From Pseudodesulfovibrio profundus (GTDB lineage: Bacteria > Desulfobacterota > Desulfovibrionia > Desulfovibrionales > Desulfovibrionaceae), in NCBI RefSeq assembly GCF_900217235.1, contig NZ_LT907975.1:1345501-1409500 (forward strand): a stretch of 64,000 bases of DNA, in the 5' to 3' direction. The notes beneath the pieces are model-generated. The model was not told the origin of the DNA. It did no database searches and saw only the letters and a list, made by a program, of their open reading frames with translations. Below are positions 12,851-29,805 of the stretch, piece after piece (within the stretch, counting starts at the first letter, position 1; every line of letters begins with the position of its first letter). The position numbers and the translations under genes are program-made.

Positions 12851-12854
12851 CCCA

Positions 12855-14584: not shown

Positions 14585-14644
14585 GTTGGATACCACTCCT
14601 CTACTGAGAAACCGCTTTCAGGGGTGACATTCAGGCTCTCAATA

Positions 14645-15040
14645 TCAATGCTTAAATGGATTAGACACAGCAGGCAGCCCTATCCCATAAAAGGCCTTCC
14701 TAGATGGACTGGATGGATTTGAAAAATCTGAAATAGGCCAAGGCAAGCTCTTTTCTATACCAAAGCTTTTGTACTGATCATGGGTCATTTCTACCCAAAT
14801 ACTCTCAACAACAATTTTTTCCCCAACAACATCAAAGACATTGGAAGGAGTAACCCTTACAATAGACTGGACATTTTTAATATCCCGAAATGATATCAAT
14901 ACAGGCTCTAAGCGACCTTTAAGCTCATACTGCCCTGGCAAAAAAGCAGGCCACTGCTCCTTAGCACCTCGGGACAATTCAGCCGCGAGCCATGGAAGCT
15001 CTTTTAGGGTTTGAACCCCATAAGTATCATTGGGGAGAAG
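14645..15040 (-). pseudogene. Gene of unknown function truncated at its 5' end by an IS3 element
   Basis: About 130 codons of a minus-strand gene remain, from the IS edge at 15040 to a stop at 14645. The protein includes VQTLKELPWLAAELSRGAKE and PVLISFRDIKNVQSIVRVTP and ends VSNPFKH. I see no motif that fixes a function; a domain of alternating strands is suggested. The open frame continues into the insertion sequence, but those codons are antisense to IS DNA and are not native. The missing 5' part is not found on the far side of the IS pair at 17685, so DNA has been lost or rearranged. Confidence 0.55.
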
Positions 15041-15101
15041 TGGCCTCGGAAAACTGGACCACTCGATAAGGTGGACATAAACTGCCCGAAGGAGGCAATT
15101 C

Positions 15102-15386
15102 ATGTCCAAGACGAGAAAACGTTTCAGCGCGGAATTCAAAGCCCGAGTCGCCCTGGATGCCCTGTCCGGGGAACACACCCTGTCGGAACTCGCCAGCAAG
15201 TACGGCGTACACCCCAATCAGGTTTCCCAGTGGAAGAAGCAGGCCAAGGAAGGGATCGTGGCGTCCTTTTCAGGCAAGGCCGTCGGCCGTCAGGATAACG
15301 GGGCCCAGATCAAGGAGCTTCACGCCAAGATTGGCCAGCTCACGGTGGAGAAGGATTTTTTGCAACAAGCCTTCGCCAAAATTTGA
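15102..15386 (+). CDS. IS3-family transposase OrfA
   Basis: The 94-residue protein has an N-terminal helix-turn-helix (FSAEFKARVALDAL, then LSELASKYGVHPNQVSQWKKQ) and a C-terminal leucine-zipper-like helix (IKELHAKIGQLTVEKDFLQQAF), as expected of IS3 OrfA, which binds the ends and regulates transposition. Its stop overlaps the start of OrfB, the usual arrangement for production of an OrfAB fusion by frameshifting. Confidence 0.9.
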   Translation: MSKTRKRFSAEFKARVALDALSGEHTLSELASKYGVHPNQVSQWKKQAKEGIVASFSGKAVGRQDNGAQIKELHAKIGQLTVEKDFLQQAFAKI

Positions 15387-16264
15387 GCTGTGAGCGAAGG
15401 CGAGAGGTGGTCGACAAGACTCACCCCGAGCTCAGTATCCGGCGGCAATGCCGAATTCTCAAGCTGTACCGATCGACGTACTACTACGAACCGATCGGCG
15501 AATCTCCGGCCAACCTGGCCCTTATGCGCCGAATCGATGAGTTGTTTATGGAGCTGCCGTTTTTCGGTTCCAGACAGATGCGTAATACCCTACGAGACGA
15601 AGGGCAAAGGGTCGGTCGTGAACGGGTACGACGTCTGATGCGTAAAATGGGCCTGATGGCGATTTACCAAAAGCCAAAGACAAGCCATCCGCATCCGCAA
15701 CATAAGACGTATCCGTATTTGCTGCGGCACAAGGCGATTACGAAGCCCAATCAGGTTTGGTGTGCCGACATCACGTATATCCCCATGACACGCGGCTTCT
15801 TATACCTTGTGGCGGTCATGGACTGGCACAGTCGGGCCGTCCTGTCGTGGAGGCTCTCAAACACGATGGATGCTGATTTCTGCGTGTCTGCCTTGGAAGA
15901 AGCCCTGAATCGTTATGGGGTGCCGGAAATCTTCAACACCGACCAGGGATCACAGTTCACCAGCTACGAGTTCACACGGACGCTCAGAGAGGCTGGAATT
16001 CGTATCTCCATGGACGGTCGAGGCCGATGGATGGATAATGTGATGATCGAGCGTCTGTGGCGTTCGTTGAAATATGAATGTGCTTACCTGCGTGAGATGG
16101 GAACCGGAAGCGAACTGCGGCAAGCCTTGGCTTGGTGGTTCGATTTCTACAACAATCGACGTCCGCATTTTGCTTTTGACGGCAAGAAGCCGATGGAGAT
16201 ATATCAGAACCGTTCCAGGCCAGAGGGGGTACCCCCTCTGGCCTGGAACGAAAGAGCGGCGTAG
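15383..16264 (+). CDS. IS3-family transposase OrfB (DDE integrase)
   Basis: The 293-residue protein has the HTH_21-type region (SIRRQCRILKLYRSTYYY) and an rve catalytic core. The first Asp is in VWCADITYIPM, the second in FNTDQGSQFTS and the Glu in VMIERLWRSLKYE, giving a full D-D-E set. The frame begins with TTG 15383 inside the end of orfA and is probably translated by frameshift. The last codons lie in a 40-bp perfect palindrome (16211-16250). The element looks intact. Confidence 0.92.
   Translation: MSCERRREVVDKTHPELSIRRQCRILKLYRSTYYYEPIGESPANLALMRRIDELFMELPFFGSRQMRNTLRDEGQRVGRERVRRLMRKMGLMAIYQKPKTSHPHPQHKTYPYLLRHKAITKPNQVWCADITYIPMTRGFLYLVAVMDWHSRAVLSWRLSNTMDADFCVSALEEALNRYGVPEIFNTDQGSQFTSYEFTRTLREAGIRISMDGRGRWMDNVMIERLWRSLKYECAYLREMGTGSELRQALAWWFDFYNNRRPHFAFDGKKPMEIYQNRSRPEGVPPLAWNERAA
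16211..16250. repeat. 40-bp perfect palindrome with GGGGGTACCCCC core
   Basis: The sequence CGTTCCAGGCCAGAGGGGGT at 16211-16230 is followed by its exact reverse complement at 16231-16250. It lies in the last codons of orfB of the first IS3 element and encodes PEGVPPLAW. No T-run follows, so it is not a classical terminator. A related palindrome with the same core occurs at 20245-20282 in a different IS3 element. Confidence 0.95.
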
Positions 16265-16390
16265 CTCGTAAACGTGTCCACCTTAAAATCGTCGCTCAGT
16301 GGTCCGAAGAACCGAGGCTGCGCTTTCCCCCGAAATTCGGACCACCGGTTAAGGTGGAGTCAGCGTCCTTAAACCGATAAGGAAGGACGC

Positions 16391-16669
16391 ATGACAAAGA
16401 GCAGCAAAAGACGGAAACATTCGGACAAGTTTAAGGCCAAGGTCGCACTTGAGGCGATTCGTGGCGTGAAGACGCTTGCGCAACTGGCTGCGGAGTACAA
16501 AGTGCACCCCAATCAGATTTCCACGTGGAAGCGGCAGCTCCTTGAGAATGTCGATGACATCTTTTCCAGTGGCAAGAAAGCCAAAAGCCAGGAGGAGATA
16601 ACCGCACCGTTATTTGAGGAGATCGGTCGGCTCAAGATGGACATCAAGTGGCTTGAAAAAAAGTTGTAA
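16391..16669 (+). CDS. IS3-family transposase OrfA
   Basis: The 92-residue protein opens with a basic tract (TKSSKRRKHSDKFKAKVALEAI) and a helix-turn-helix (LAQLAAEYKVHPNQISTWKRQ), then a coiled C-terminal helix (FEEIGRLKMDIKWLEKKL). It is the DNA-binding OrfA of the second IS3 element. It is clearly related to, but distinct from, the OrfA at 15102. Confidence 0.9.
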   Translation: MTKSSKRRKHSDKFKAKVALEAIRGVKTLAQLAAEYKVHPNQISTWKRQLLENVDDIFSSGKKAKSQEEITAPLFEEIGRLKMDIKWLEKKL

Positions 16670-16683
16670 GCCTGCCGCTTGAG

Positions 16684-17511
16684 GTGCGCCGCCAGTGGAT
16701 CAAACCAGATCGGGAGTATTCCATCCGGCGGCAATGCAAGTTGGCAGGCATTTCCCGTTCGGGATTTTACTACAAGCCTGTAGCCGAATCCGATGAAAAT
16801 TTGGCCCTGATGCGTCTGATCGACGAGCAGTACCTGCGTCAGCCTGATTACGGCTCGCCGCGCATGACAGATTGGCTGAGGACACAAGGGCATCAGGTCA
16901 ACCACAAGCGGGTTGAGCGACTGATGCAGATGATGGGCTTGCAGGCCATTACTCCAGGGCCGCATACGAGTGTCCCCAACCCGGAGCATCCCGTGTTTCC
17001 TTATCTGCTGAAAGGAGTTGCCATTGAACGAAAAAATCAAGTCTGGAGCGCTGATATCACCTACATCCCCATGCAGCGCGGCTTTCTGTACCTGGTGGCA
17101 GTGATAGACTGGTGGAGCCGCTTCGTGCTGGCTTGGGAGCTATCGAACTCGATGGATAGTTCTTTCTGCGTGGATGCGCTCAACAAGGCTTTGCGCATCT
17201 CTACGCCGGAGGTGTTCAACACGGACCAGGGAGCGCAGTTCACGAGTCGTGAATTTACCGGAGTTCTGCAGAGCAAGGGAATTGCAATCAGCATGGACGG
17301 CAAAGGTCGCGCAATCGACAACGTCTTCATTGAGCGGCTGTGGTGGACGGTGAAATATGAGGATATTTACCCCAGGGCGTACTGTGATGGGATCGAGCTA
17401 TACCATGGGCTTACGCGCTATTTTCGGTACTACAACGAGGAGCGCGGTCATTCGTCGTTGGACAAAAGAACTCCCGCTGACGTATACAGGGGCAACTTGA
17501 ATGTTCATTGA
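16684..17511 (+). CDS. IS3-family transposase OrfB (DDE integrase)
   Basis: The 275-residue protein carries SIRRQCKLAGISRSGFYYK near its start and the catalytic D-D-E set in VWSADITYIPM, FNTDQGAQFTS and VFIERLWWTVKYE. It ends with the common RTPADVY motif. The frame is open a little upstream of 16684 and is probably reached from orfA by frameshift. The core is intact, so the element may be active. Confidence 0.92.
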   Translation: MRRQWIKPDREYSIRRQCKLAGISRSGFYYKPVAESDENLALMRLIDEQYLRQPDYGSPRMTDWLRTQGHQVNHKRVERLMQMMGLQAITPGPHTSVPNPEHPVFPYLLKGVAIERKNQVWSADITYIPMQRGFLYLVAVIDWWSRFVLAWELSNSMDSSFCVDALNKALRISTPEVFNTDQGAQFTSREFTGVLQSKGIAISMDGKGRAIDNVFIERLWWTVKYEDIYPRAYCDGIELYHGLTRYFRYYNEERGHSSLDKRTPADVYRGNLNVH

Positions 17512-17520
17512 CTTGGCTCG

Positions 17521-17593
17521 TAGCCGTTGCTCCGCTCCGCCCTCGGCCCTTCGGGCCGCCCCTACGGGGACGGGCTACGCTCCACAACGGCTA
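17521..17593. repeat. Long nested hairpin in the 3' non-coding end of IS3 element 2
   Basis: TAGCCGTTG at 17521-17529 is the reverse complement of CAACGGCTA at 17585-17593. Between them lie further GC-rich pairs, including GGCCCTTCGGGCC at 17545-17557 and CCCCTACGGGG at 17560-17570. The structure sits between the orfB stop and the right inverted repeat. It could block readthrough transcription or serve as a recombination substrate; no T-run is present. Confidence 0.7.
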
Positions 17594-17684
17594 TGGCGAC
17601 CCGCCTCCTCGGAGGCACAAACTCGGACGCCGGGCTCCACCTTAAAAAGACCGATCAGTGGTCCAAAGGATGGGGGGAGGCGCA

Positions 17685-18562
17685 CATATTATCAGGCTGA
17701 TTTATATAATGATGAATCTGCAAATCCAGATGAATACCAACTTCAAACCGGTGATATCTTTGTTAAAGAAAATAAAAATGTTTATGTAATATGTAACGCT
17801 GAATGCGACCTTGCGTTCAATTCCCAAACAGGAAGAAAAAGAAAAGATGACTTGCCTATTCTTTTTGTTCCTGGAGATCTGAAATTGTATCAGGGAGTAC
17901 CGCAAAGCCCTCTTGGTTTTATAAATATTGACAATGAAGATTATAGTGTTTTTCTGAATGAAAATCTCACCTTTTCAATGCCTTATAGTGAAGTCTCCGA
18001 CTGGGCGAATAAGTGCAACTGTCAAAGGAAGTTTAGGCTAAAGACGAAGCATGCGTTGAATCTTCAAAAATCAGTATCGGAACAAATATTTAGGATAGGC
18101 TCCCACAAGACACCTCCAATATACAGAACCGTGTCTCTTGAATTGTACCATCGCGAAAAGATAGGCTCACATCTTTTTGTAAAATCGAGATTACCAAAAC
18201 CTATTTCAGGAAGCTCTGTAACGTCAGGGAAAAAGATGGATAGGTACGACTTAAATATTGCATTTCCTAATATCTTGGATATTAGTGCGGCTATGGCAAA
18301 CCACGCTAATGAACTAGTTCAAACCGCTATAGAAATTTACAAGACTGAAGATAAGCCAAAATGGTATAAACAGCGAATGGATTTATACGAATCTGTCAGT
18401 GATAATTTTAAAAATTTACATAAGTATTTTTTTAACACATCATTCAAAGCTTCTGGCGATAAAATCGATGAGCTCGTAACAACCGTTTGCTACAACGAAT
18501 TTGAACCTAAAAGCATAAACGGCAATCACATGTTTGTATTGCTAATCAAAAACAATGATTAA
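17685..18562 (+). pseudogene. IS-truncated partner of the PP-loop gene, unknown family
   Basis: About 290 native codons remain after the IS edge at 17684; the open frame upstream of this point is IS DNA. The surviving part begins YYQADLYNDESANPDEYQ, followed by GDIFVKENKNVYVICNAECDLAFN and KDDLPILFVPGDL. The C-DL motif beside hydrophobic strands may form a small barrel. The C-terminal half is helical. The last 8 bp overlap the start of the PP-loop gene, so the two formed an operon and probably act together. The DNA is AT-rich compared with the surrounding backbone, a sign of acquisition. I do not recognise the family. Loss of the 5' end probably inactivates it. Confidence 0.6.
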
Positions 18563-19364
18563 CGTCCGTCACATTCTAAGCCTATCCGGTGGCAAAGATA
18601 GTGCTGCATTAGCTGTATACTTGCGAGATAAGATTCCTGAAATGGAATACATCTTTCATGACACTGATAAAGAACTGCCCGAAACGTATGAGTATCTATA
18701 TAAGCTAGAGGCCATTCTGGGAAAAAAGATAACCTACACCACCTCTGAACGTAGCTTCGACAAATGGCTTAAAGTCTTTGGCGGGATGATCCCATCCAAC
18801 CATCGTCGGTGGTGTACCAAGATGCTCAAAATTCGGCCATTTGAAGACTATGTTGGCGATGACATCGTCATTAATTATGTTGGATTACGTGCGGATGAAC
18901 GCCGCGATGGATATATTAGCCCCAAACCCAATATTACAGCCGTTCATCCCTTTAAAGAGGATGGTCTTGTTAAGGCTGACATTATCAATATCCTAGAAGA
19001 ATCCGGTTTGGGTTTACCTGGTTATACCGAGTGGGGACGTTCTAGATCTGGCTGTTTTTTTTGTTTCTACCAGCAAAAAATCGAATGGGTACGACTTAAA
19101 GAAAAGCACCCAGACCTATTTGAACAGGCAAAGGCCTACGAATATGCGAACAACAAAAATGGGAACCCGTTTTATTGGAATAAAAATGAATCATTGGCGC
19201 AACTAGAGAAGCCAGCTCGCATGAAGCAAATTGTAAAGAACTGGGAAAAAAAGCAACTATTAAAGAAAAAAAACGCCGCGAATCAACCTCTTGCTCAAGT
19301 CCTCGGGGGACTAGGCCAACACGAAGAGCCTGAGCGTGAAGGTTGCCTTATTTGCGGCGTATAA
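18555..19364 (+). CDS. PP-loop ATP pyrophosphatase, PAPS-reductase/DndC-like
   Basis: The 269-residue protein has the PP-loop SLSGGKDSAAL at residues 9-19, then HDTDKELPETYEYL and RRWCTKMLKIRPF near residue 85. It also has two later cysteine pairs (SGCFFCF near residue 160 and CLICG at the C-terminus) that may bind metal or an iron-sulfur cluster. These features place it with CysH/DndC-type proteins, which adenylate a substrate or handle sulfur. It is shorter than DndC and no dndBDE genes are nearby, so sulfate assimilation or classical phosphorothioation is unlikely. As transposon cargo in an AT-rich block it is better viewed as a candidate phage-defence component (inference). It overlaps the truncated upstream gene by 8 bp. 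Confidence 0.75.
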   Translation: MINVRHILSLSGGKDSAALAVYLRDKIPEMEYIFHDTDKELPETYEYLYKLEAILGKKITYTTSERSFDKWLKVFGGMIPSNHRRWCTKMLKIRPFEDYVGDDIVINYVGLRADERRDGYISPKPNITAVHPFKEDGLVKADIINILEESGLGLPGYTEWGRSRSGCFFCFYQQKIEWVRLKEKHPDLFEQAKAYEYANNKNGNPFYWNKNESLAQLEKPARMKQIVKNWEKKQLLKKKNAANQPLAQVLGGLGQHEEPEREGCLICGV

Positions 19365-19375
19365 AATTCGTTAGA

Positions 19376-20183
19376 CTACTTAAAGAGCAACTTCTTTGCA
19401 CCATAGCCAACGGCAAGTAGCAAGATTATATCGCCAACACTTATTCCGCCGCTCGCATTCTTATTAACAGGGGCAGTTTTCACGCTAGATTTATTAAAGG
19501 AAAAAAACTTCTTTTCGAGCGAGGTGTTGGTGTCTAACTGGCCAGCTACAAAGTACTCTTGATCGGCAAAAAACACATATGAGACACCGCTGTTATTCTG
19601 TGCACTTTGGTATTTTATTCCAAAAACCCGCCGGCCGTCTTTTTCAAATAAGTACTTAAAATATTCAGTCATTATCTGTGTTGGGACATACTCAACATGT
19701 TCCCGGCCATCCTTTTCGATAGGCCGACGAAACTCGGACAAAAAACCTTTCATAAAAATAGCGGCTACACGATTATCCCTACTCTCATGGTCAAAAATGC
19801 TCGGGACCTCAAATCCATCTGTGAGATCTAGAATTGTCGCGTCTTTCAAAAGTCCAAATTCGCCAACAGAGGCGATCCCCTTAGACTTATTCCCAGAAGC
19901 AGCCTCAACAATTGCAGTTTGCACATCGCCCGCTGCGTAAAACATCACAACACCTGCCGGACTCATCCGATTAGCAAACTTAGCAAATTCAACGGGAGGA
20001 GGGCCGAGCTCCTTAACAGACGCAAAGGTATCTTTGTCATGCACTCTTGCCCGAAACACTATTTCGCCAGCTTTCATTGTTTTGAGCAGTCCTAAATCGA
20101 AGCAATACTCGGCTACAGACTCCAGAATGTCGCATGAGGAGGTAGCGTCTTGCGTTCCGTAACCATATGGATCCCTTTGGGGT
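19376..20183 (-). pseudogene. C-terminal part (RES domain) of a HEPN/RES gene split by IS3
   Basis: This fragment encodes the last 267 residues of a gene whose 5' part lies at 21423-21929. It holds a RES domain: IVFRARVHD, then PPPVEFAKFANRMSPAGVVMFYAA and QTAIVEA, the conserved Arg, Tyr and Glu region of this fold. RES proteins are related to ADP-ribosyl transferases, and known ones degrade NAD+ as toxins. A hydrophobic C-terminal segment (VGDIILLLAVGYGAKKLLF) could anchor it in a membrane. The native frame starts at 20179. Upstream codons in the same open frame belong to the insertion sequence. Confidence 0.8.
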
Positions 20184-20209
20184 TGTAAAGTCCCCCATCT
20201 TAGGACCAC

Positions 20210-21052
20210 CTAGGAGTAGAAACTTCCAGCCGTTTTTTCGAGGTTGCCCAGAGGGCAGGGGGTACCCCCTGCCCTCTGGGCAGCAAATTCAATTGGCGTC
20301 ATGTTGCCGAGAGATTCATGAGGCCGTTCCTCATTGTACTCCCGGATAAATTCTTCAGTACAACGGCGGACTTCACTCAAGCTGTTGAAGATATACAAGT
20401 CCAAAACCTCCTCTCTATATGTCCTGTTGAATCGCTCTACGTAGGAGTTTTGCGTTGGCTTGCCCGGTTGGATCAAGTCCAGTTCAACGCCATGCTCTTC
20501 AGCCCATACAGCCATGGCCGAACTGACAAACTCCGGCCCGTTATCCATCCTGATCCTTTCAGGATAGCAATTACGCTCCTCTGCGACACGATCTAGAACT
20601 CTGGTCACTCGTCCCGCCGGAAGATTGGTGTCGATTTCAACAGCCAGCACTTCACGGTTGTAATCATCAACAGCGTTGAAAGTCCTGAACGCTCGTCCGC
20701 TGTATAGCGTGTCGCGCATGAAGTCGATCGACCAGCAATGGTTTGCCGACAACGGTTGTGCCACCGCAATTCTTGGTCCTTTCGGACGGCGCTTCTTTGA
20801 CTTGCGCTTCAGGTTCATCTTCAGCAAGCAATACACTCGCCATACCCGTTTATGATTCCAGAGCTTGCCCTGTTTTCGAAGGACAGCGAAGAGCTTGCTG
20901 AAACCCCATGTCGGCTTTTTCTCGGCCAGTTCGATCAACGCTGCAACCACTTCGCTGTCATCACGAGGGTGCGGCTTGTAGGCGTAGTAACTTCGGCTAA
21001 CCTTCAAAGCCGCGCATGCCTTGCGAATGCTCATCTCGTGTTCGTTGACCAT
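20210..21052 (-). CDS. IS3-family transposase OrfB (DDE integrase)
   Basis: The 280-residue protein has the MSIRKACAALKVSRSYYAY helix-turn-helix at its start and a DDE core: CWSIDFMRDTLYSG, IRMDNGPEFVS and SYVERFNRTYREEVLD. It ends with the NEERPHESLGNMTPIEF motif usual for IS407-group elements. The final codons (GGTPCPLG) are encoded by a 38-bp palindrome. Production probably needs a frameshift from orfA, which ends at 21085. Confidence 0.93.
   Translation of the reverse strand: MVNEHEMSIRKACAALKVSRSYYAYKPHPRDDSEVVAALIELAEKKPTWGFSKLFAVLRKQGKLWNHKRVWRVYCLLKMNLKRKSKKRRPKGPRIAVAQPLSANHCWSIDFMRDTLYSGRAFRTFNAVDDYNREVLAVEIDTNLPAGRVTRVLDRVAEERNCYPERIRMDNGPEFVSSAMAVWAEEHGVELDLIQPGKPTQNSYVERFNRTYREEVLDLYIFNSLSEVRRCTEEFIREYNEERPHESLGNMTPIEFAAQRAGGTPCPLGNLEKTAGSFYS
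20245..20282. repeat. 38-bp perfect palindrome with GGGGGTACCCCC core
   Basis: TGCCCAGAGGGCAGGGGGT at 20245-20263 is followed by its exact reverse complement to 20282. It lies near the 3' end of orfB in IS3 element 3. Its core and its outer CAGAGG/CCTCTG arms resemble the palindrome at 16211-16250 in IS3 element 1, although the two transposases are different. Confidence 0.95.
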
Positions 21053-21084
21053 GTGCGAAACGAGCTGCTTGCGTTCAACTGGCC

Positions 21085-21351
21085 TCAGAGCTTTTTTTCG
21101 ATGATATCCTTAAGAGCGGTGTTTTCAAGGCTGAGGTCGGCAAACATCTGCTTGAGCTTGCGGTTCTCAGCCTCAAGGTCTTTCATCCGCTGGATATCGG
21201 ATGCTTCCATGCCGCCGTATTTCGACTTCCATTTGTAATAGGTGGCATTGCTGATGCCGTGCTCACGGCATACGTCCTTGACGGTCCTACCGCCTTCTAC
21301 GGACTTCAGGATCTTGACGATCTGATACTCACTGAATCTTGATTTGCGCAT
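21085..21351 (-). CDS. IS3-family transposase OrfA
   Basis: The 88-residue protein starts MRKSRFSEYQIVKILKSVE and has the helix-turn-helix VKDVCREHGISNATYYKWKSKY, followed by a long heptad helix (DLEAENRKLKQMFADLSLEN) that would mediate dimerisation. This is a standard IS407-type OrfA. I chose ATG 21351 because it matches the usual N-terminus; the frame is open 15 codons further upstream, almost to the IS end. Confidence 0.92.
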   Translation of the reverse strand: MRKSRFSEYQIVKILKSVEGGRTVKDVCREHGISNATYYKWKSKYGGMEASDIQRMKDLEAENRKLKQMFADLSLENTALKDIIEKKL

Positions 21352-21422
21352 AAGAAACTCCTGGCTCAGTTTGGGCCAGAAGTCTCTACTTTGCAATGGA
21401 CCTATTATACGGGGACTTTACA

Positions 21423-21929
21423 GGGTAATTTAAAAAAAACATAACGAGATTTATGCTTTACCTCTCGACAAAAGCAATCCCAATAGTATTGTATTTCAAC
21501 CTCTGGGTTTGGATTTGCAAAGTCCTTCAACCAACAATCCTGATTAATCACGCCAACAATATCCGAAAAGACCTCGCTCTCAGCCTCAAATTCCTCTTCA
21601 AACAGTACCTCCTCTGTTGTGTGAGGATCAATGATCCATCCACCTTCTTTCGACTCATAGGGCGTCCCTGAGCCTTCAGGGCTATTCCATTCCGCTCTAA
21701 TGCTTTCGACAACGAGACCTACAACATCTTCGAGAGAAGCCGCTATAGGAGAAGAACCCTCTTTTCCGCAATAGTCACAGACATTACTAACAGCGTTGTC
21801 TGAAACAAACCTTTTTACAGCCTCTTCGTGTATGCAGTCCTTGCAAACATTTTTCTCCGGGACATCGCCATATCCTCTACTTTCAACCTCTTCCATCCAT
21901 CTCTTCATTCCACCCATGACCGACTCCAC
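21423..21929 (-). pseudogene. N-terminal part (HEPN-type domain) of a HEPN/RES gene split by IS3
   Basis: These 169 codons begin MESVMGGMKRWMEEVESRGYG and contain two zinc-binding-type cysteine pairs (CKDCIHEEA and CDYCGKEG). A helical region with PYESKEGGWIIDPHTTEEVLFEE follows, which matches the HEPN/RES N-terminal domain type found in front of RES domains. After the CCC codon at 21425-21423 the frame enters the insertion sequence. Joining to 20179 gives SRYVFFKLP-QRDPYGYGTQD and a single 436-residue protein. The whole gene is a candidate defence or toxin gene of the transposon cargo; in its present state it should be inactive. Confidence 0.75.
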
Positions 21930-21978
21930 AAAAATTAGCTAAAAAGTACGCGCGAGTTAATGCACAATTTTATGGTCT

Positions 21979-23598
21979 TCATAACTTCAATCGCTGCATC
22001 CATCCATAAACCCTCGCAGACCAGCCTGCGATAGATTCAGGATCAAGGACACCTCTCCCCCCCTTGGGAGTCTGAGGATGGTTGACGCCACAATGGCGTT
22101 CCTTCCCGCACAGATCGTTGAGTAGCTTCTTTGGCCAGTTGAGGGAATCTTGGATGAGTTCTCGTTTCAAAACCTCAAAGTTGGCTTTCCATCCCATCAA
22201 GTCCTTTACAACGAGGACTCGGGTGGAAATAGCCTTATCGGCGTCTGAAGTGTCTACTTCAAGCAGATGCACAATCCTGCCTCCAGTTCTCAGGCCAATC
22301 ATTGCAATGCTTCTCGCTTCGCCAGTTGTTGAGAGTAGGTGTTTCTTACACCTCCCCACTTTGGGAAGCGGGACAATCATTTTTTCGACAAAGACGCACC
22401 CATACGTTCCGATAAGGACTCGGGCCATGTCTAGGAAGCACTCAAATTTATTTTCGAAAAACCGGCTGTAATCCGTTTCGTCGTTCAAGGTGTTCCAGTC
22501 TGCCGCAGGCAGGCCGTGATCAGCAACGCCTTCTTCCGTGCTGACCGAAACTACTTTGTTTCCACTTTCGTCGCCCTGAGTTGAGGTAGCTCCCTTTCTG
22601 TCCTTGGAGGCTACCCGATTTACATGAAATGGCTTCTTGAACACGACGGCAACACTGTCGCCCTCCATCTGTATTGCGGTGGTGTCAGCGTTAGCGGCAA
22701 TGTCGTCATGGATGATCAGCGGAGAATGCTCTGCATTACCGGCAGGATGAACTACTTGCCCGCTTCCAGGAATGGAGTGCTCAAATTTCGGATGCTCGAT
22801 ATATATTTCTTCCGGCATCGCATTTGGGACGCCTCTGATCGCATCAATCTCCCAGGCAAAAAAACAGTTCACTTCTTTAACAAATTGCCCACGGGCTTGT
22901 AGAAAGACATTTTCCAGGGGCGGCGGTTCGAACTGAAAGGTCCATTTTCGATATTTTGGCGCATTCTTCCCGTTAAATCGTTGAAACTTGCATATGCTTT
23001 CATAGGATTTACGAGCATCAGCATCCAACAGGACCCAGGAAAGGTAGTTTTGGGATTTCGGTTCATTCAAGTGGGACACGGCATAGCCGGCAGAAGGCAT
23101 AACTCGAATGGTCGCGCAATTCTGTACATGGTCCACGAAAACGTCGAACTCGCTTCTCAAACACTCCGATTCAATTGCCGTCCGGGAGAGATACTTGCCA
23201 TGAAAAAACAGGGTCCGAGCCAACTCGAATTGCGGGAGGAATATTGTCCTGCCGTCATAGTTTTCGAAAACAAAACAGAACTGGCCTGCTTCCAGCCTCC
23301 TTTGGAACCCTGCGATCGGACATTCTCCGATTCTTTTGACGAGCCACTTTCGCGTATCTGTGATCTTGATCCGTTGGTTGTACCCCGGCTTCGAGAATTC
23401 TGTGGTTGGGTTAATTATGCGCCTTCTTGCGAGAATGGGGGCATTAGAGAAACTCAGGTAGCTTTTACGTTGAGAAGGAGCGAGTTGAAGATTGACGTTC
23501 CATTTGCTGCCGGAATGCCATCTGAACAACGATCCAATCCCCAAAATTTTCACATCGTCATCAAATTTTTTGAATTGATATTCATTCATTTCGACCAT
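21979..23598 (-). CDS. tnsE: TnsE, Tn7 target selector for replicating or conjugal DNA
   Basis: The 539-residue protein occupies the tnsE position after tnsD and is within one residue of the length of Tn7 TnsE (538). In Tn7, TnsE directs insertion to lagging-strand DNA and mobile plasmids through DNA structure and the sliding clamp. I see no common domain motif, which is normal for TnsE, so the call rests on position, size and the completeness of the tns set. The C-terminal region with DYSRFFENKFECFLDMARVL and a late basic segment would be the DNA-binding part. The start (23598, or the Met three codons later) overlaps the tnsD stop, so translation is coupled. Confidence 0.78.
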   Translation of the reverse strand: MVEMNEYQFKKFDDDVKILGIGSLFRWHSGSKWNVNLQLAPSQRKSYLSFSNAPILARRRIINPTTEFSKPGYNQRIKITDTRKWLVKRIGECPIAGFQRRLEAGQFCFVFENYDGRTIFLPQFELARTLFFHGKYLSRTAIESECLRSEFDVFVDHVQNCATIRVMPSAGYAVSHLNEPKSQNYLSWVLLDADARKSYESICKFQRFNGKNAPKYRKWTFQFEPPPLENVFLQARGQFVKEVNCFFAWEIDAIRGVPNAMPEEIYIEHPKFEHSIPGSGQVVHPAGNAEHSPLIIHDDIAANADTTAIQMEGDSVAVVFKKPFHVNRVASKDRKGATSTQGDESGNKVVSVSTEEGVADHGLPAADWNTLNDETDYSRFFENKFECFLDMARVLIGTYGCVFVEKMIVPLPKVGRCKKHLLSTTGEARSIAMIGLRTGGRIVHLLEVDTSDADKAISTRVLVVKDLMGWKANFEVLKRELIQDSLNWPKKLLNDLCGKERHCGVNHPQTPKGGRGVLDPESIAGWSARVYGWMQRLKL

Positions 23599-25097
23599 CC
23601 GAGGTAGTACAAGAATTGTCTGGTTAGGTCATACATTCTCTGTTCGCTCAGACCGGACAACCGTAGCAATTCCCAATAGGATATTTCTCCTGAAGGTGAG
23701 TCATGGTCTATTATGGTTCGGATAACCCTCCTTACCTGGTAGCTACCTACATCTTCGCTGAATAGTTCCAAGAATGCAGCCGAAAGGGGCAGCTTACCTA
23801 ACTTGCGCGAAAGATGCCGACACTCGGATTGGGTCAGGTACCAATTTATGCTCCTGCGTGGGCCGTCCAATTTATGAGAATGCTCTCGTTTTACCGCCTT
23901 GAGGCTCTCAAGAACCAACCTGTCTCGTTCATGCCAATCAACTCGTTGGCTTTTCGAACGAGTTGTCCTTCTATATTTGTTGTTGACGTCATTTAGCCAG
24001 TTACGGTCATTTCTGTAAAGCCAAGTGTAAATTGCGTCACCTCCTGATTTTCGTGATTTCCTGGCCCCTTGCCCTTTAACCATCTCAAGCCATGCCTTGC
24101 GTTTGGCATACAAAACAGATTGCGAAATGTTCCCCGATGGGGAATAGGCCACCGGATGTTTTGGGGCGATTTGCTTTCGGGCTTGAGAAATCACATCTTC
24201 AAAATTCCACTCCGCCCCCAGCAGTGTTTCCAAGACTACTATGTGCTGCAAGAAGCTGTGTGACTTCCTGTGCTTTCGCATGAAAAGGCGTAACCAGTTG
24301 GATTTGTTGTCGGTGACGGGAATACCCAATTGGGCAAGACTTTGGGGTGTCCAGGAAGAGAGGACTTTATGCTTGAGGAGATCGTAGCTGACTTTGCTTT
24401 TTCTGGTGATTTCGGCTGCATGAGCGGTTAGTGCGTAAAAGAGGCTCCATTGCTCAAGGCTGGGCGATCGCGCAGGCGGCAGATCGAGAAGTTCTTTCAC
24501 TCGCCTCTCTATACGTTTCCCATTGGGAGAACTGTTTGAGTTGGATGGCAAGCACAACATGGTCGGAGTTAGGGCTACATAGGCATGCCTGTGGTAATTG
24601 TGCAATTTGTACTGCGTGCTGTACAGTTCGCCGTGCATAAGACAATGGCTGCAGCCCGGAACCTGCCACTGACGTAACCAGTATAGCTCACCATGTTCTG
24701 AGAGTTGTTCTTCTAAGCATTGAGGGCACACCCGGAGATACTCCGGCTGACGAATTCGAGATGTCGTAACCCCCAAGGCCACATGGACCGCCCCTTTGGC
24801 TCGGTGTGTCATCCAGTCTAGGGCTACAAGTCTCCTCGTTTCCGGTATGAAGGGAGCGTAAAGCGGAAAGAGGGTATGCTTGTATATCAGGTCTTCAGCG
24901 GCAAGACCTAATGAATCCGGGTACTGTTTAGAAATGGCCTCTACATGGGACGGCAGATCAATCGTGGCTACGACCCTTCTGTCGCTAAAGACTGCATCCA
25001 GGAGTTGCTTGGGACTTGTGATGCCAAAACGAACGCCCGCCCGTGCTACAGTGCTATAAAGCAATTCGTCCGGATACGGCACGGGAAAATTAAGCAT
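23586..25097 (-). CDS. tnsD: TnsD/TniQ-family target-site selector
   Basis: The 503-residue protein (Tn7 TnsD has 508) opens with FPVPYPDELLYSTVARAGVRFG, the start typical of the TniQ family. It has the zinc finger CPQC...CSHC near residues 120-155, with the RQWQVPGCSHCLMHGELY segment. In Tn7, TnsD binds the 3' end of glmS and recruits TnsC so that insertion occurs a fixed distance downstream. The position of this element, 25 nt past the conserved glmS codons, shows that this protein or its ancestor worked in that way. It lies 4 bp after the tnsC stop and overlaps tnsE. Confidence 0.92.
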   Translation of the reverse strand: MLNFPVPYPDELLYSTVARAGVRFGITSPKQLLDAVFSDRRVVATIDLPSHVEAISKQYPDSLGLAAEDLIYKHTLFPLYAPFIPETRRLVALDWMTHRAKGAVHVALGVTTSRIRQPEYLRVCPQCLEEQLSEHGELYWLRQWQVPGCSHCLMHGELYSTQYKLHNYHRHAYVALTPTMLCLPSNSNSSPNGKRIERRVKELLDLPPARSPSLEQWSLFYALTAHAAEITRKSKVSYDLLKHKVLSSWTPQSLAQLGIPVTDNKSNWLRLFMRKHRKSHSFLQHIVVLETLLGAEWNFEDVISQARKQIAPKHPVAYSPSGNISQSVLYAKRKAWLEMVKGQGARKSRKSGGDAIYTWLYRNDRNWLNDVNNKYRRTTRSKSQRVDWHERDRLVLESLKAVKREHSHKLDGPRRSINWYLTQSECRHLSRKLGKLPLSAAFLELFSEDVGSYQVRRVIRTIIDHDSPSGEISYWELLRLSGLSEQRMYDLTRQFLYYLGWSK

Positions 25098-25101
25098 ACC
25101 A

Positions 25102-26766
25102 CTACCCTGCTTTGTTCAGCCAGTCCTCCAAATTGAATATTACTGAGTTCTTGCTCAAATGCGCATGGAGAGATTTCTTGTCAGCTTGGGAGTACATGAA
25201 CCGCAAATCGTCTGATTCCAACGTATGCCAGTCTTTTTGAGGGACAGACTTGGTTTTCGGTCTTTTCTTCGAATGAGGCTTTTCATCTGATTCATACCAC
25301 TTCAACGCTATTGATACCAAATCCTTTGTGGCGAGCTCCGGATGTTCTTCGACAACGCGTCTCACAAGCGGAACGATTGCTTCGCTCTCAAAGTCCATGC
25401 TTATCAGCAAGCTGTGAAGCCTTAGGGCTTGGGAGTTCCCTTGGTATGGATCAGAGGTGGCGGCTGATGACCATGGTGGCTTTATAGCGGCCGTAAGCTT
25501 GAGCAGCTTGGTGTCGATGTCGGGGATCATCAAATCCGAAAATTCCGCAATCCGTTCAGGATCACCGGACCGAAGGGCTGCCAGCATCGGGTGTACCGGC
25601 TTCAATTCGTCTTCATACACTTTGTTCAGAATGTTGATCGTAATCCGCTCTACACCCGTCACAATTGCCCTAAGTTGGGCCAGGACAAACAGTTTGACGA
25701 CAATATCCAGAACCCCCTGGGACAAGTCGAACCAACAGTCGCGAATATCATCCATCAGGACCTCATCCCGTTTCTGGAGCCATTGGTAGGTCCATAGTTT
25801 GTCCGTGAAGGCTTTCCATTCAGTTATCCTACTCGTACCCGTTGCTGAATCTATAATCTGAGTTGGAGGCTTCATCGGTTCCCATAGAAGAGAACCGAAG
25901 CCGGCACCACGTCGGCCGGAACGCAGATCCTCTTCAAAAATCGGCCTCGCCTTGGGCGTTCCCACGAATACTACGGGTAAGCCAATGGTGTTCACCAGCG
26001 TAACAAAGAAATTGAGCATTTTGTCGACACCGCCCGACCGCTTGCGGCTAAGGTGCTGAATTTCGTCTATGACGAGCACGCCGATGGCATGAGCGTTTGC
26101 CACCTGGCTCATTTGGGCCAAAAGCGTTTCGATCCCATGCCGTTTCTTGACGTACTTGGTCTCGTAATCCGTATGCAGAACACGGTCCAAGGCCCTGAAA
26201 AAATGGATGCACAAACTCTTCAGGGAACCGTCGTGGGGGCAATCCACCTTGAGATGAACGACTTGGGTAAAATTATGGTCTTCATGGAAAATAACTTGTG
26301 GATACGTTGAAAGGATTCTGTCCAATGACGTGCTCTTTCCGCTTCCGGAACAGCCAATCAGCAACGAGCTCGAAGCGGTTGATTTGACCTGATGAAAACG
26401 AAAGACGTCCAGGTCGCCGGTCATGATGCGCTCATAGCCATTTTGCATATGGGTATTGAGTGAGCCGTCTTCAAGGTTTCTTCCGACGTATCCCTTCCTG
26501 ATCATTATCGAGAGCTTTTCTTCCAGCAGTACGTGAGAAGCGAGCGGTTGGAAAAAATCATCGAGCAACGAGGCAATCATGTGCGCCCGGTCACGCCCCT
26601 CGGCAAAAATGTCTTTAAGATCGTAGTGGACGGAACCGGTCAGGCCTGCCTTGACCTGCTTCACGGAAAGAGTCGACGGCAAGGCCTCGATAAAAGGATT
26701 GCCTCGATACTGGACGATAGCCGATTCCCGGTACACCGCTTTTACCATGTTGGGAGGGAGTGCCAT
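25102..26766 (-). CDS. tnsC: TnsC, AAA+ ATPase regulator of transposition
   Basis: The 554-residue protein (Tn7 TnsC has 555) carries Walker A in LIGCSGSGKSTSLDRIL near residue 140 and Walker B in GVLVIDEIQHLSRKRSGGVD near residue 235. A sensor region, TIGLPVVFVGTPKA, follows. TnsC forms ATP-dependent filaments on target DNA and links TnsD or TnsE to the TnsAB transposase; it also confers target immunity. The start ATG 26766 directly abuts the tnsB stop, with GAGGAG in front. The C-terminal part should contact TnsA and TnsB, as in Tn7. Confidence 0.94.
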   Translation of the reverse strand: MALPPNMVKAVYRESAIVQYRGNPFIEALPSTLSVKQVKAGLTGSVHYDLKDIFAEGRDRAHMIASLLDDFFQPLASHVLLEEKLSIMIRKGYVGRNLEDGSLNTHMQNGYERIMTGDLDVFRFHQVKSTASSSLLIGCSGSGKSTSLDRILSTYPQVIFHEDHNFTQVVHLKVDCPHDGSLKSLCIHFFRALDRVLHTDYETKYVKKRHGIETLLAQMSQVANAHAIGVLVIDEIQHLSRKRSGGVDKMLNFFVTLVNTIGLPVVFVGTPKARPIFEEDLRSGRRGAGFGSLLWEPMKPPTQIIDSATGTSRITEWKAFTDKLWTYQWLQKRDEVLMDDIRDCWFDLSQGVLDIVVKLFVLAQLRAIVTGVERITINILNKVYEDELKPVHPMLAALRSGDPERIAEFSDLMIPDIDTKLLKLTAAIKPPWSSAATSDPYQGNSQALRLHSLLISMDFESEAIVPLVRRVVEEHPELATKDLVSIALKWYESDEKPHSKKRPKTKSVPQKDWHTLESDDLRFMYSQADKKSLHAHLSKNSVIFNLEDWLNKAG

Positions 26767-28854
26767 TTAGTTCTCCTCGTCGCCGAAAAGTTCTTCAATG
26801 AAGTCGGGGTACTCGCCGCTTTCAACCTCATTACCATTCAAAGGCGTCACCTTGGCTCCTGTGGATGTGTCAGGTTGCGCGGGCTTACTGATCAAAGGGC
26901 TCCGCTCCCGTCGCTTCTCCTGCTCCTTATTGCCGCGAATGCTGCCGATTCTCTTGGCTTTGCTCATGCCCTCGGTATCAGGAGCCCGCTCCTCGGCTTC
27001 TTTGATTTTACCTGCGATAAAGCGTTCGTGCTTCCGCTTTTGCGTTTCCATTTCCAATCGACTTTGGGCAGTGACCTTTTTCTGCTTATCCTTGATCTGC
27101 CAGACATCCCAGAAGGAGGCTCCGGCAAACTCCCGTGAGCGTTGCGCCAGATTGCATTGCCAGTATTCGCCGCTGTTTTGCGACGGGAACAAGTAGATGG
27201 TGTCGGCTGAAGACGGATCGTATGCCGCTTGCAGCCCGACCGGCCTGCGCACCCCTTTACCCCTATGGAGCCAGCCTCGTTCAACGATTTCCCTGGAAGT
27301 GTAGTGAACTCCAAACACGGATACTCCCAGCTCGGATACAGTGGCTTTTGTTCGCGGCATGAGACTGATACGAATAGCCTCCTCGGAAGCAGTCCTCAGC
27401 CGTCCTGTACGATTTTGGATACCCCAATTCCATAACGAAAGCGGGGTCATTACCAAATCTGCCGGCATGTCCGAATCGCGATCATATTTTTCCAACACGT
27501 CGTACTGGTTATGCACCAACACGGAGGAAAGAATGATTTCCTTGAAAGCCCGCACAGTAAGCTTGGCGTCCAGTCGGTAGTCTCGTCCTCCGTGCTTCTT
27601 CACGAGAGTCTTCTCGACAACGCCTGGCGCGAATGGCTTGAACTCGGACTGGATTGTCCGGAAATTCCGTTCGACAATACCTTTGGCGTCACCTCTATAT
27701 GGAGGAGTGTTTTCGATCCTGACCGAAAAGCATGCTTCCAACGATTCAATCTGATGGCCCAACAGTTCTCCTCTGTCGGCCAGTATGGCGTCCGGCAAAC
27801 CGACAGCGGGCCAATCTTCTTCCGTGATCTCAAAGCCGTATTCTTTGCAGAACTGAACCTTGTCGGTCATGGACATAACGAGTGCTTGGAGTGCTGCGGG
27901 GTAGGAAGCATTTTCGAACCCGACATAGAGGCCGGTGACCATGCGGCTGAATACGTCGATGACGAAGTAGACGACCGGCCGTCCGACGATATTGCGCCTG
28001 TCGCTGTCCGAGACCAGATAGATGTCGGCTATGGTCGCATCAATCTCATATCTTGAGCCAGGTCCGAGGGCGTCCACGTTGGCCGTAGAAGAAATTGGCC
28101 TGACATCCTTGTCGTACTCGATGCGGCTTGTCCGCTTTTTCAGCTTTTCGACCGTTCCGTATTCACGCTTGTAAAAATGCAGCATCTGCCAGTTGGTCGG
28201 AATTTCCGATTCGGGTGTGCCGGGAAAATGGTTTTCATAAAGATCAATAAATCTGCGGTGTGCGTAGGGGAAGCTGCTCCCTTTGTCCTTCAGCAGATAT
28301 TTGTTGATCGCAATCCGGAACAACCGCTCCGTCTGTTCGTCAACCACGGCGCCGACTCCGGGCATGTGTTTACGAGGTCTTCCGAGCTTTTTGGTTGTCG
28401 CCTTGCGTTTTTTCCCCTTTCCCCCGGAATTCCTGTAGTCCGGCAACAGGGCATTAGGGATTTGACCGCGTTGCCAGTAACGCCGGATCATCTTGTAAAG
28501 ATGAGGCAAAGAGGTGTGCTTTTTCTCGACGGTCTCCGCAATCAGGGCACCGCGTACCTTGGGATCGTAATATGAAGGATCGTTAACGATGGCCTGAATC
28601 AAATCGTAATTCTTGTCCCGTTTTATCTGGGCTTTGCTACCTTGCTCCGGTGTACTGAAAGCAAGTTCCACGAACGGGTCGTCGGTCCTCGAAAGGGTGC
28701 CGTCGTCAAAGCCTTTCTGCAAATCTCTGACAAGCACGATCGAAGGGAATGCTTTGGGATCATCCACGCCGATCCACACTAATTCCTCCCCGTGCAGGGA
28801 CAAAACCCTGAACAACGCTCCATCACATTTCAGGACTTCATTTATTCTGAACAT
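26767..28854 (-). CDS. tnsB: TnsB, DDE transposase
   Basis: This is the rve-superfamily transposase that binds the end repeats and cuts the 3' strands. Counting from MFRINEV, the catalytic acids are D272 (YEIDATIADIYLV), D360 (ILADRGELLGH) and E395 (AKGIVERNFRTIQ), each one less than D273, D361 and E396 of Tn7 TnsB. Length is 695 residues against 702 in Tn7. I chose ATG 28854, which has GAGGAGGATCTTC upstream; the frame is open 34 codons earlier, but that part would lie inside tnsA. The tnsA stop overlaps by 17 bp, so the two subunits are translationally coupled. Confidence 0.96.
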   Translation of the reverse strand: MFRINEVLKCDGALFRVLSLHGEELVWIGVDDPKAFPSIVLVRDLQKGFDDGTLSRTDDPFVELAFSTPEQGSKAQIKRDKNYDLIQAIVNDPSYYDPKVRGALIAETVEKKHTSLPHLYKMIRRYWQRGQIPNALLPDYRNSGGKGKKRKATTKKLGRPRKHMPGVGAVVDEQTERLFRIAINKYLLKDKGSSFPYAHRRFIDLYENHFPGTPESEIPTNWQMLHFYKREYGTVEKLKKRTSRIEYDKDVRPISSTANVDALGPGSRYEIDATIADIYLVSDSDRRNIVGRPVVYFVIDVFSRMVTGLYVGFENASYPAALQALVMSMTDKVQFCKEYGFEITEEDWPAVGLPDAILADRGELLGHQIESLEACFSVRIENTPPYRGDAKGIVERNFRTIQSEFKPFAPGVVEKTLVKKHGGRDYRLDAKLTVRAFKEIILSSVLVHNQYDVLEKYDRDSDMPADLVMTPLSLWNWGIQNRTGRLRTASEEAIRISLMPRTKATVSELGVSVFGVHYTSREIVERGWLHRGKGVRRPVGLQAAYDPSSADTIYLFPSQNSGEYWQCNLAQRSREFAGASFWDVWQIKDKQKKVTAQSRLEMETQKRKHERFIAGKIKEAEERAPDTEGMSKAKRIGSIRGNKEQEKRRERSPLISKPAQPDTSTGAKVTPLNGNEVESGEYPDFIEELFGDEEN

Positions 28855-29665
28855 GAAGATCCTCCTCGGTGCCCCACGAATCCGCAAGAGCCAAATCGGC
28901 AGGCGTGAGCTTGGTGGAAATCTTGAATATATCAAATGTGAATATGCGCTGGGCAAGAAGCTGCCTGATTTCCCTCAGGGATTCGCCCGGCGGTTGCTCA
29001 TAGGCAACATCAATCTTTTTGGCGATGTTGGTGAGCGTTGTTTTGGGGTTGGCAGCGAAATGATAGCTGTACGTATCGACAAGCTGCGGCAAGTCTTCGG
29101 CGGCGATTTCGTCCCGTTGTGCCGGGTAAAGCCATTTGATGTTCTGGAAGACGATGGCAGGGATTTCTTTCTCCGTGATCAAAAACCACGGCACATCCTT
29201 GTGCTCCCAATACCGACGTTCAAGCTCAAGCTTTTCCATGACGCGCGACTTTATGAGGTCCTCGGAACGTTTGGCTTGCAAGGCAAATTTCGGAAGGTCT
29301 TTGTGCGTGGAGTTCGCCAGAAAGTCCGACGACATGACCTGCTCGACGCCAGCCACAGCAGGATGCTGGATGCCGCACTCTGCTGCTATCTCAAGGGTCA
29401 GTTCTCTCTGAAGAGAAAACTGCTCTCTGATCTCAACAATATCCGGCTGCCATTCGAGAATGAGGAAGACCGCCAGTTCAAGATCGGAAAAGAGGTGGTG
29501 GGTTCTTTGCGACTTGTGTCCGAACACGCGGTGGGACCGTCCCCGTGAAGGGAGATCGCGCACGGTCAGCCATGGTTTATAGTCACGGCCTCTGCCGTCA
29601 CCGCGCCCTTCCTTGATCCATTTCCGGATCTTGGGCTCGGTCAGAGAATACTTGTTGTTGGCCAT
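28838..29665 (-). CDS. tnsA: TnsA, restriction-endonuclease-like 5'-strand nuclease
   Basis: The 275-residue protein is a type-II endonuclease fold enzyme that cuts the 5' strands so that transposition is cut-and-paste. Its catalytic residues fall at E63 (FSDLELAV), D114 (VMSSDFL) and K132 (FALQAKRS), the same numbers as in Tn7 TnsA. The C-terminal domain should contact TnsB and TnsC. It is the first gene of the tns operon. Its ATG is 56 bp from the first end repeat, so its promoter probably lies within or next to the right end, where TnsB binding could repress it, as in Tn7. Confidence 0.95.
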   Translation of the reverse strand: MANNKYSLTEPKIRKWIKEGRGDGRGRDYKPWLTVRDLPSRGRSHRVFGHKSQRTHHLFSDLELAVFLILEWQPDIVEIREQFSLQRELTLEIAAECGIQHPAVAGVEQVMSSDFLANSTHKDLPKFALQAKRSEDLIKSRVMEKLELERRYWEHKDVPWFLITEKEIPAIVFQNIKWLYPAQRDEIAAEDLPQLVDTYSYHFAANPKTTLTNIAKKIDVAYEQPPGESLREIRQLLAQRIFTFDIFKISTKLTPADLALADSWGTEEDLHVQNK

Positions 29666-29720
29666 AAGAAAACCGCTCCTAGCTTGCTCATTATGAACAA
29701 CATACCAGAAGCGGTTTCAC

Positions 29721-29805
29721 TTAACAACTTTATTACTTACTTAACAACTTTATTACTCACTAAACAACTTTATTACTCACTAAACAACTTTATTACTCAC
29801 CCACA
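29721..29805. repeat. Right end of the Tn7-like transposon: four 20-bp repeats and TGTGGG terminus
   Basis: Four abutting 20-bp units, close to TTAACAACTTTATTACTCAC, occupy 29721-29740, 29741-29760, 29761-29780 and 29781-29800. The last two are identical and the others differ at one or two positions. The outer five bases CCACA (29801-29805) complete the terminal TGTGGG read inward. Tn7 has four overlapping TnsB sites in its right end and the same TGTGGG tip. The bases CGGCC at 29806-29810 are the expected 5-bp target duplication. Confidence 0.92.

What the first reader, a model, noticed from the sequence alone, without database searches (positions are those of the whole stretch)
21979..29805. 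Complete Tn7-type tnsABCDE module outside the classical hosts, with Tn7-equivalent active sites
All five genes are present in Tn7 order with near-identical lengths. TnsA catalytic residues fall at E63, D114 and K132, the numbers of Tn7 itself, and TnsB residues at 272, 360 and 395, one less than Tn7. TnsD and TnsE are both intact, so both targeting routes may be open. A second complete Tn7-like system in a sulfate-reducer-type genome would be useful for comparison.
Basis: partly seen in the sequence, partly recalled or inferred. Interest (0 to 1): 0.75.

Follow-up and report, generated by a model that had tools for sequence, protein, structure and literature searches.

The report
Tn7 transposon parked behind glmS
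This is a genuine Tn7-family jumping element sitting in its usual landing place behind an essential gene in a sulfate-reducing bacterium; the element itself is ordinary, but its edge carries a hairpin, shared by many relatives, that may shield its genes from the neighbour's transcription and stand in for the neighbour's stop signal.

Summary
The genus is Pseudodesulfovibrio. It is a new member of a known kind: 10 of 36 genomes of this genus match its TnsE. In 7 of 8 tns-less relics behind glmS hairpin and T-run survive. I infer that it guards tnsA from glmS read-through and replaces the glmS terminator. Untested in cells; its link to glmS adjacency is not significant after phylogenetic correction, and a right-end palindrome tied to a tnsABC promoter is already reported for a CRISPR-associated relative.

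The parts
29800..29805 (-). right terminus TGTGGG of the element, 31 nt behind the VTV codons of glmS
29725..29797 (-). four tandem TnsB-like sites 20 bp apart (core AGTAATAAAGTTG)
29699..29727 (-). sigma70-like promoter TTGTTA-N17-TATGTT; -35 in the last TnsB-like site, -10 near the hairpin loop; predicted start about 29692
   Evidence: match to a recalled consensus; not measured
29669..29718 (-). terminator-like hairpin followed by a T-rich run (TTTTCTT, partly inside the stem) up to the tnsA ATG; AGGAG in the 3' arm
   Evidence: z -7.4 for the window; covariation; AGGAG
28838..29665 (-). tnsA, endonuclease subunit; E63 D114 K132
26767..28854 (-). tnsB, DDE transposase subunit; D272 D360 E395; mosaic break near 28100-28150
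25102..26766 (-). tnsC, AAA+ regulator with the Tn7_TnsC_Int C-terminus
23586..25097 (-). tnsD, glmS-site selector (TniQ + TnsD)
   Evidence: insertion distance
21979..23598 (-). tnsE, target selector for replicating or plasmid DNA
29780..32722 (-). glmS (large form; probable true start at MCGIASFL, near 32641); usual stop lost, last 8 codons lie in the transposon right end
17501..21929 (.). probable cargo remains: an SspD-like gene, an unknown gene, a HEPN/RES gene apparently split by an IS3 element
10554..21978 (.). stretch between exosortase and tnsE where a left end was sought and not found; also holds bioDA, a symporter gene and IS3 copies

Best explanation
A Tn7-type transposon inserted by the TnsD route into attTn7 behind glmS of a Pseudodesulfovibrio. 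TnsA and TnsB would cut and join the ends, TnsC would pass on the target signal, TnsD would read the end of glmS, TnsE would aim at replicating or plasmid DNA (inferred from homology). The copy has no recognisable left end, so it is probably no longer mobile by itself (about 0.65). Its right end also carries a two-state switch (inferred, about 0.45): RNA running in from glmS folds a hairpin that ends transcription and hides the start region of tnsA, while RNA begun at the element's own promoter inside the hairpin lacks the 5' arm and can be translated. The same hairpin would stand in for the glmS terminator that the insertion pushed away. The confidence given is for the identity and site of the element with the switch as its most likely right-end function.
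For: Shown: five genes, domains, residues; right end with four sites and insertion 31 nt after the glmS VTV codons, 30 or 31 nt in 41 of the 45 adjacent elements whose terminus was recognised, 21 more not recognised; four sister elements with left ends and matching 5-bp duplications. Switch: hairpin z <= -3 in 51 of 76 non-redundant right ends; promoter TTGNNN-N16-18-TANNNT in 61 of 76 against 10.6 expected; predicted start beyond the 5' arm in 55 of 61 (80-row set before five starts were reset); covariation on all 80 rows of that set, 96 two-sided cells against 42.4 shuffled, 0 of 500, slid structures at most 50; hairpin plus T-run kept in 7 of 8 tns-less relics behind glmS.
Against: No expression, termination or transposition data. 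The strict promoter pattern is met by only 2 of 8 non-redundant right ends of this genus, the window being one. Strong hairpins go with glmS adjacency (40 of 48 against 9 of 26) but not significantly on phylogenetically independent pairs. An SD-like 4-mer lies in the right place in only 19 of 51 strong hairpins, though all 19 are in the paired arm. Only 42 of 76 have a T-run of 4 or more. On the 80 rows two of the covariation measures, pairs with two-sided change and pair types, do not exceed the shuffles (220 and 115 of 500). In a CRISPR-associated Tn7-like element a right-end palindrome was mutated and one arm's sequence, not the palindrome, mattered for orientation (passage of PMC10201428).
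Confidence: 0.85

Rival explanations
1. The hairpin is only a terminator for glmS (or a barrier to read-through) and has nothing to do with tnsA translation or promoter choice.
For: It is kept in 7 of 8 relics without Tns matches; the same script also finds a hairpin with a T-run behind 4 of 8 glmS copies that show no trace of an element (-20 kcal/mol or lower), so a terminator seems wanted there anyway; an SD-like 4-mer is present in only 19 of 51 strong hairpins.
Against: In intact elements the hairpin abuts the tnsA start codon, the promoter pattern is threaded through it at a near-fixed spacing (17 nt in 53 of 66 matches) and the predicted start lies past the 5' arm in 55 of 61.
Confidence: 0.3
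2. The inverted repeat acts as DNA at the right end (promoter or protein site, or a part in end choice and orientation) rather than as RNA.
For: It directly follows the TnsB sites at a constant place. In VchCAST a palindrome 97-107 bp from the right end was suspected to promote tnsABC transcription, and one arm's sequence shifted integration orientation (passage of PMC10201428).
Against: The arms vary and keep pairing by two-sided changes and G-U pairs, and a T-run follows on the glmS-transcribed strand in 42 of 76. Whether the VchCAST palindrome corresponds to this hairpin was not tested here.
Confidence: 0.15
3. The element is still mobile; a left end exists but is too diverged for the searches.
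For: All five tns frames are open and the four sister copies with recognised left ends have perfect duplications.
Against: No site-like sequence was found between tnsE and the exosortase gene that follows glmS directly in two relatives; the one CCCACA found lies inside the symporter gene; several IS3 copies lie in the stretch.
Confidence: 0.25
4. The mosaic arose in the ancestor of the G014/G045 elements, not in the window's element, by recombination between tandem elements at attTn7.
For: G015 shares TnsA and TnsB N-terminus with G014/G045 (84 and 79%) but not the rest; G000 shares the rest (TnsB core and TnsC 87-94%). One event suffices. Tandem ends are seen in G016 and G045.
Against: Direction is not fixed by the data; G013 has a tnsA 88% like the window's over 138 residues but truncated.
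Confidence: 0.55

Closest known systems
Tn7 (TnsABCDE, attTn7; copy on E. coli plasmid R721)
   Same: Gene order, lengths, active-site residues, TGTGGG end with TnsB-like sites; a hairpin with TTGTAA-N17-TATGCT before tnsA. Insertion behind glmS with the right end proximal as described for Tn7 (PMC2918618 passages).
   Different: 29-51% identity per protein; four tandem sites 20 bp apart of another sequence; no left end found; mosaic tnsB; glmS stop lost.
Tn7-type elements of the same genus (G014, G045, G004, G015, G016, G041, G043)
   Same: Site, gene order and right-end plan; TnsE 44-89% identical.
   Different: G014 and G045 share TnsB core to TnsE (83-94%) but only 62-64% in TnsA and the TnsB N-terminus.
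VchCAST (Tn6677) right-end palindrome
   Same: A palindrome near the right end, suspected to promote tnsABC transcription (passage of PMC10201428).
   Different: CRISPR-associated element; no terminator or read-through role in the passages seen; homology not tested.
IS10/IS50 protection from outside transcription (recalled)
   Same: Logic: read-through RNA folds to hide the transposase start, own transcript starts inside.
   Different: Here in a Tn7-type element, joined to a terminator and to TnsB sites; not demonstrated.

Membership tests
Tn7 (TnsABCDE type) | five genes tnsA-B-C-D-E in order, one strand | tested here: met
Tn7 (TnsABCDE type) | TnsA restriction-enzyme-like active site E63, D114, K132 | tested here: met
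Tn7 (TnsABCDE type) | TnsB DDE triad | tested here: met
Tn7 (TnsABCDE type) | TnsE with the known C-terminal fold | tested here: met
   (predicted model)
Tn7 (TnsABCDE type) | insertion at the fixed distance behind glmS, right end proximal | tested here: met
Tn7 (TnsABCDE type) | right end TGTGGG with several TnsB sites | tested here: met
   (TnsB binding itself not tested)
Tn7 (TnsABCDE type) | left end with TnsB sites | tested here: not met
   not found in the window; present in four sister elements. Filed as the remains of a Tn7-type element that has lost an end, not as a complete Tn7
Tn7 (TnsABCDE type) | 5-bp target duplication | tested here: inconclusive
   cannot be read without the left end; exact in G014, G045, G016, G041
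Tn7 (TnsABCDE type) | five proteins of one lineage | tested here: inconclusive
   TnsA and TnsB N-terminus discordant with the rest, within the elements of one genus
Tn7 (TnsABCDE type) | transposition by TnsABC+D and TnsABC+E | not testable with these tools
   needs a bench assay
IS10/IS50-type read-through protection | start of own transcript inside the hairpin, start region hidden in read-through RNA | tested here: inconclusive
   sequence layout fits; no RNA data

The most novel reading that the evidence does not exclude
Tn7-type transposons carry at the right end a conserved promoter-in-terminator hairpin fused to the tnsA start codon: it silences tnsA in RNA coming from glmS, lets the element's own promoter work, supplies glmS with a new terminator, and is kept by the host as that terminator after the transposon decays.
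Probability: 0.45. Interest if true: 0.6.

Novelty: new member of a known kind. Interest (0 to 1): 0.4.

Why it matters
The element itself adds one more host to a well-known family. What could matter is the right-end hairpin: it would explain how Tn7 can live behind an essential, transcribed gene without being switched on by it and without leaving that gene unterminated, and it gives a mark for finding past Tn7 occupancy. The mosaic in tnsB shows that the end-recognition part can be exchanged apart from the catalytic and targeting parts.

Tried and rejected
An early result that TnsB was only about 34-37% identical to most other elements of the genus was my own frame error (TnsB taken from 28853 instead of 28854); with the right frame the identities are 65-83%, and the idea of a swapped whole TnsB was dropped. 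Five tnsA starts had been set inside the hairpin (Abaum, L117, L118, L121, L137) because the -10 motif contains ATG; they were reset. That hairpins are stronger beside glmS looked significant (Fisher 6e-5), but independent pairs on the TnsA tree went the same way in 2.0, the other way in 0.3 and did not differ in 5.7 of 8, so it is not claimed. The promoter pattern does not depend on glmS (38 of 48 against 21 of 26). Rfam gave no match in the window at gathering thresholds and ARAGORN no tRNA. A second, broken tns copy in the same genome (G000b) was examined and is not needed for the explanation; by eye it seemed to follow a tRNA end, but ARAGORN finds no tRNA in the two stretches, so that is dropped. 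bioDA and its symporter gene first looked like cargo; next to bioDA of relatives, 8 of 9 loci show a symporter match and one (L032) none, so they may be host genes. Literature: nine searches of an open-access library, of which 46, 58, 67, 90 and 104 asked about Tn7 with terminator, hairpin, palindrome or promoter. I saw listings, and passages of PMC2918618, PMC4265352, PMC8649781, PMC8450116, PMC12150760, PMC10293859 and PMC10201428. The last reports a right-end palindrome in VchCAST linked to a tnsABC promoter, found only on re-checking; because of it I lowered the novel case from 0.5 to 0.45 (its interest 0.65 to 0.6), the overall confidence from 0.9 to 0.85 and interest from 0.42 to 0.4, and raised the DNA rival from 0.1 to 0.15. 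No description of a terminator or read-through role was seen, but most subscription papers are not held. The 1986 glmS-terminator paper was seen only as a reference title. PMC4265352 and PMC8450116 did not show the IS10/IS50 passage I looked for, so that comparison is recalled. The sigma70 and Shine-Dalgarno patterns used in scripts are recalled.
Full report
Observation. Pfam recognises all five proteins; TnsB only by its C-terminal Mu domain, but it matches Tn7 TnsB (7pik) over nearly its whole length (E 1.4e-216). TnsA E63/D114/K132 and TnsB D272/D360/E395 align with the Tn7 residues and are the same in the 17 elements aligned, except that TnsA E63 lies outside one fetched locus. TnsE, the most diverged (29% to Tn7), is recognised by Pfam (4e-37), by PDB sequence and by fold (model pLDDT 84.9; 5d17 TM 0.87-0.88 by target).

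Place. The finding's right border is the transposon end: TGTGGG at 29800-29805 on the minus strand, then four tandem TnsB-like repeats 20 bp apart. It abuts and overlaps the end of the glmS frame (29780-32722, minus), the large form of the gene in this genus. The terminus lies 31 nt after the VTV codons of glmS; of 66 elements with the glmS motif close by, 41 show 30 or 31 nt, 4 show 25, 28 or 29, and in 21 my pattern did not recognise the terminus. Of the 32 other glmS loci examined, 31 end two residues after GISRP and one copy in G043 has a longer tail; in the window the protein runs on as QQEKAVWVSNKVV, the last 8 residues being coded by the transposon end.

Host and spread. Ten of 36 genomes of the genus, the window's included, match TnsE, one of them (G023) only by a 27-residue remnant and one (G019) by a part at a contig edge. 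A search with a TnsA alignment confirmed 363 of 383 candidate stretches and kept the best 80; 58 of these 80 match each of TnsA-E, 52 near full length; 71 of 80 are named Gammaproteobacteria; in 57 of 80 the glmS motif lies within 260 bp of tnsA. The system is therefore a new member of a known kind.

Left end. Sister elements have left ends ending in ...AACTTTATT...CCCACA and exact 5-bp duplications: G014 (AAAAT, 18.2 kb), G045 (CTTTT, 28.6 kb), G016 (GTTGC, 23.5 kb), G041 (ACGGC, 21.1 kb); for G004, G015 and G043 none was recognised in the stretch fetched. In the window no such end lies between tnsE and the exosortase gene at 9705-10553, a relative of which directly follows glmS in G022 and G012. 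Besides tns, the 19.2 kb between exosortase and glmS hold IS3 copies, HEPN and RES pieces with an IS3 between, an SspD-like gene, a symporter gene and the only full-length bioDA match of the genome. Probably the left end was lost; this copy would then not move alone.

Mosaic. TnsB 245-end, TnsC, TnsD and TnsE are 83-94% identical to G014 and G045, but TnsA and TnsB 1-235 only 62-64%; by DNA the change lies near 28100-28150, shortly before the first catalytic Asp (residue 272). Trees: TnsA and TnsB 1-235 reject a G000+G014+G045 clade (p-AU 7.9e-5 and 3e-4), TnsB 245-end unites it at 100/100 (the group was named after the identities were seen). Among all pairs of 82 elements with full A, B and C, only three pairs show an excess of TnsB core over N-terminus of 18 points or more at core identity of 75% or more, two of them these; the opposite sign is seen in G014/G045 against G015 (where L064 is a second record of G015). 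G013 has a tnsA 88% like the window's over 138 residues, truncated. One event is enough if the ancestor of G014/G045 is the recombinant; direction is open. Tandem ends behind one glmS (G016, G045) offer the substrate (inference).

Right-end hairpin. Directly before the tnsA ATG lies a hairpin running into a T-run: in the window 29669-29718, z -7.4 against 200 shuffles. Of 100 rows 4 were dropped because the motif used to set the tnsA start was missing (L090, L141, G051, G019); the other 96 gave 76 non-redundant rows: z <= -3 in 51, z <= -2 in 59, a T-run of 4 or more in 42. A sigma70-like pattern is in 61 of 76 against 10.6 expected; the spacer is 17 nt in 53 of 66 matches. In the earlier 80-row set the predicted start lies beyond the 5' arm in 55 of 61. 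Pair covariation: on 42 rows, nearly all chosen because they showed the hairpin, 62 two-sided cells against 22.2 shuffled; on all 80 rows of the earlier set, four with start reset, 96 against 42.4 and a score of 0.382 against 0.205, 0 of 500 shuffles each, slid versions at most 50 and 0.275; two cruder measures do not exceed the shuffles. Related sequences can exceed shuffles without structure, as the tool warns; the slid control is the better one. Within this genus the 8 non-redundant rows all have the hairpin (z -6.6 to -10.2) and AGGAG in its 3' arm region, but only 2 of 8, the window and G016, meet the strict promoter pattern.

Relics. Of 33 glmS loci examined in 32 genomes (second copies in G002, G010, G012, G049 and the hits in G007 and G009 were not fetched), 9 have a near full-length tnsA match (one, G044, with an early stop), 4 have tnsA pieces, 2 end at a contig edge, 8 have no Tns match in the 1.5 kb fetched but keep the hairpin family, seven of them with TnsB-like sites, 2 have only an end-like start, and 8 show no clear trace (sorting by eye from these outputs). 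In 7 of the 8 relics (G001, G011, G018, G021, G024, G042, G048; not G050) hairpin plus T-run remain with folding energies of -23 to -45 kcal/mol; G024 and G042 are near copies. By eye several stems are changed on both sides while the -10 is gone. A hairpin with T-run is also found behind 4 of the 8 copies without trace at -20 kcal/mol or lower, and a weak one behind a fifth, so a terminator there is nothing special; what marks the relics as Tn7 remains is the hairpin's sequence and the TnsB-like sites. This is what selection on the terminator alone would give.

Mechanism. Shown by sequence: the element, its site, the mosaic, the hairpin and its conservation. Inferred: insertion puts kilobases between glmS and its old terminator (that Tn7 enters the glmS terminator is the title of a 1986 paper seen as a reference); the right-end hairpin takes over; read-through RNA is ended and its tnsA start hidden; own transcripts begin in the loop and escape. 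Not shown: any start, end or translation in a cell. The scheme works like the protection of IS10 and IS50 against outside transcription (recalled), without being a member of those families.

What is in print. A passage of PMC10201428 tells of a palindrome 97-107 bp from the right end of the CRISPR-associated element VchCAST, suspected to promote tnsABC transcription; there one arm's sequence, not the palindrome, shifted integration orientation. That is a partial precedent for a promoter-bearing palindrome at this place and speaks for a DNA-level role in that element. I saw no account of a terminator or read-through role in nine library searches, which do not cover most subscription journals.

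Verdict. The hairpin is the part worth testing.

Noticed in passing
G000:C1 about 3721263-3725109 (L002, L003, L004, L006): A second, related tns copy in the same genome: tnsA 61%, tnsB 65%, tnsC broken off next to an IS3 element whose transposase is 96% like that at 16684-17511; it is not behind glmS.
   Followed up: partly
19376-21929: HEPN/RES N-terminal domain (21405-21929) and RES domain (19376-20209) on one strand, with an IS3 element between: probably one toxin-type gene interrupted.
   Followed up: partly
18555-19364: SspD-like protein (PADLOC 3e-115) beside an unknown gene; no other Ssp gene among the nine proteins scanned.
   Followed up: no
10850-14177: The genome's only full-length bioDA match plus a sodium:solute symporter gene stand between the exosortase gene and the transposon; in 8 of 9 relatives' bioDA loci a symporter match lies next to bioDA.
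   Followed up: partly
L047/L048 (G016) and L041/L042 (G045): A second Tn7-type end directly follows the left-end duplication: tandem elements or remains behind one glmS.
   Followed up: partly
G002, G010, G012, G043, G049: Two matches to the glmS C-terminus of the large form in one genome.
   Followed up: no
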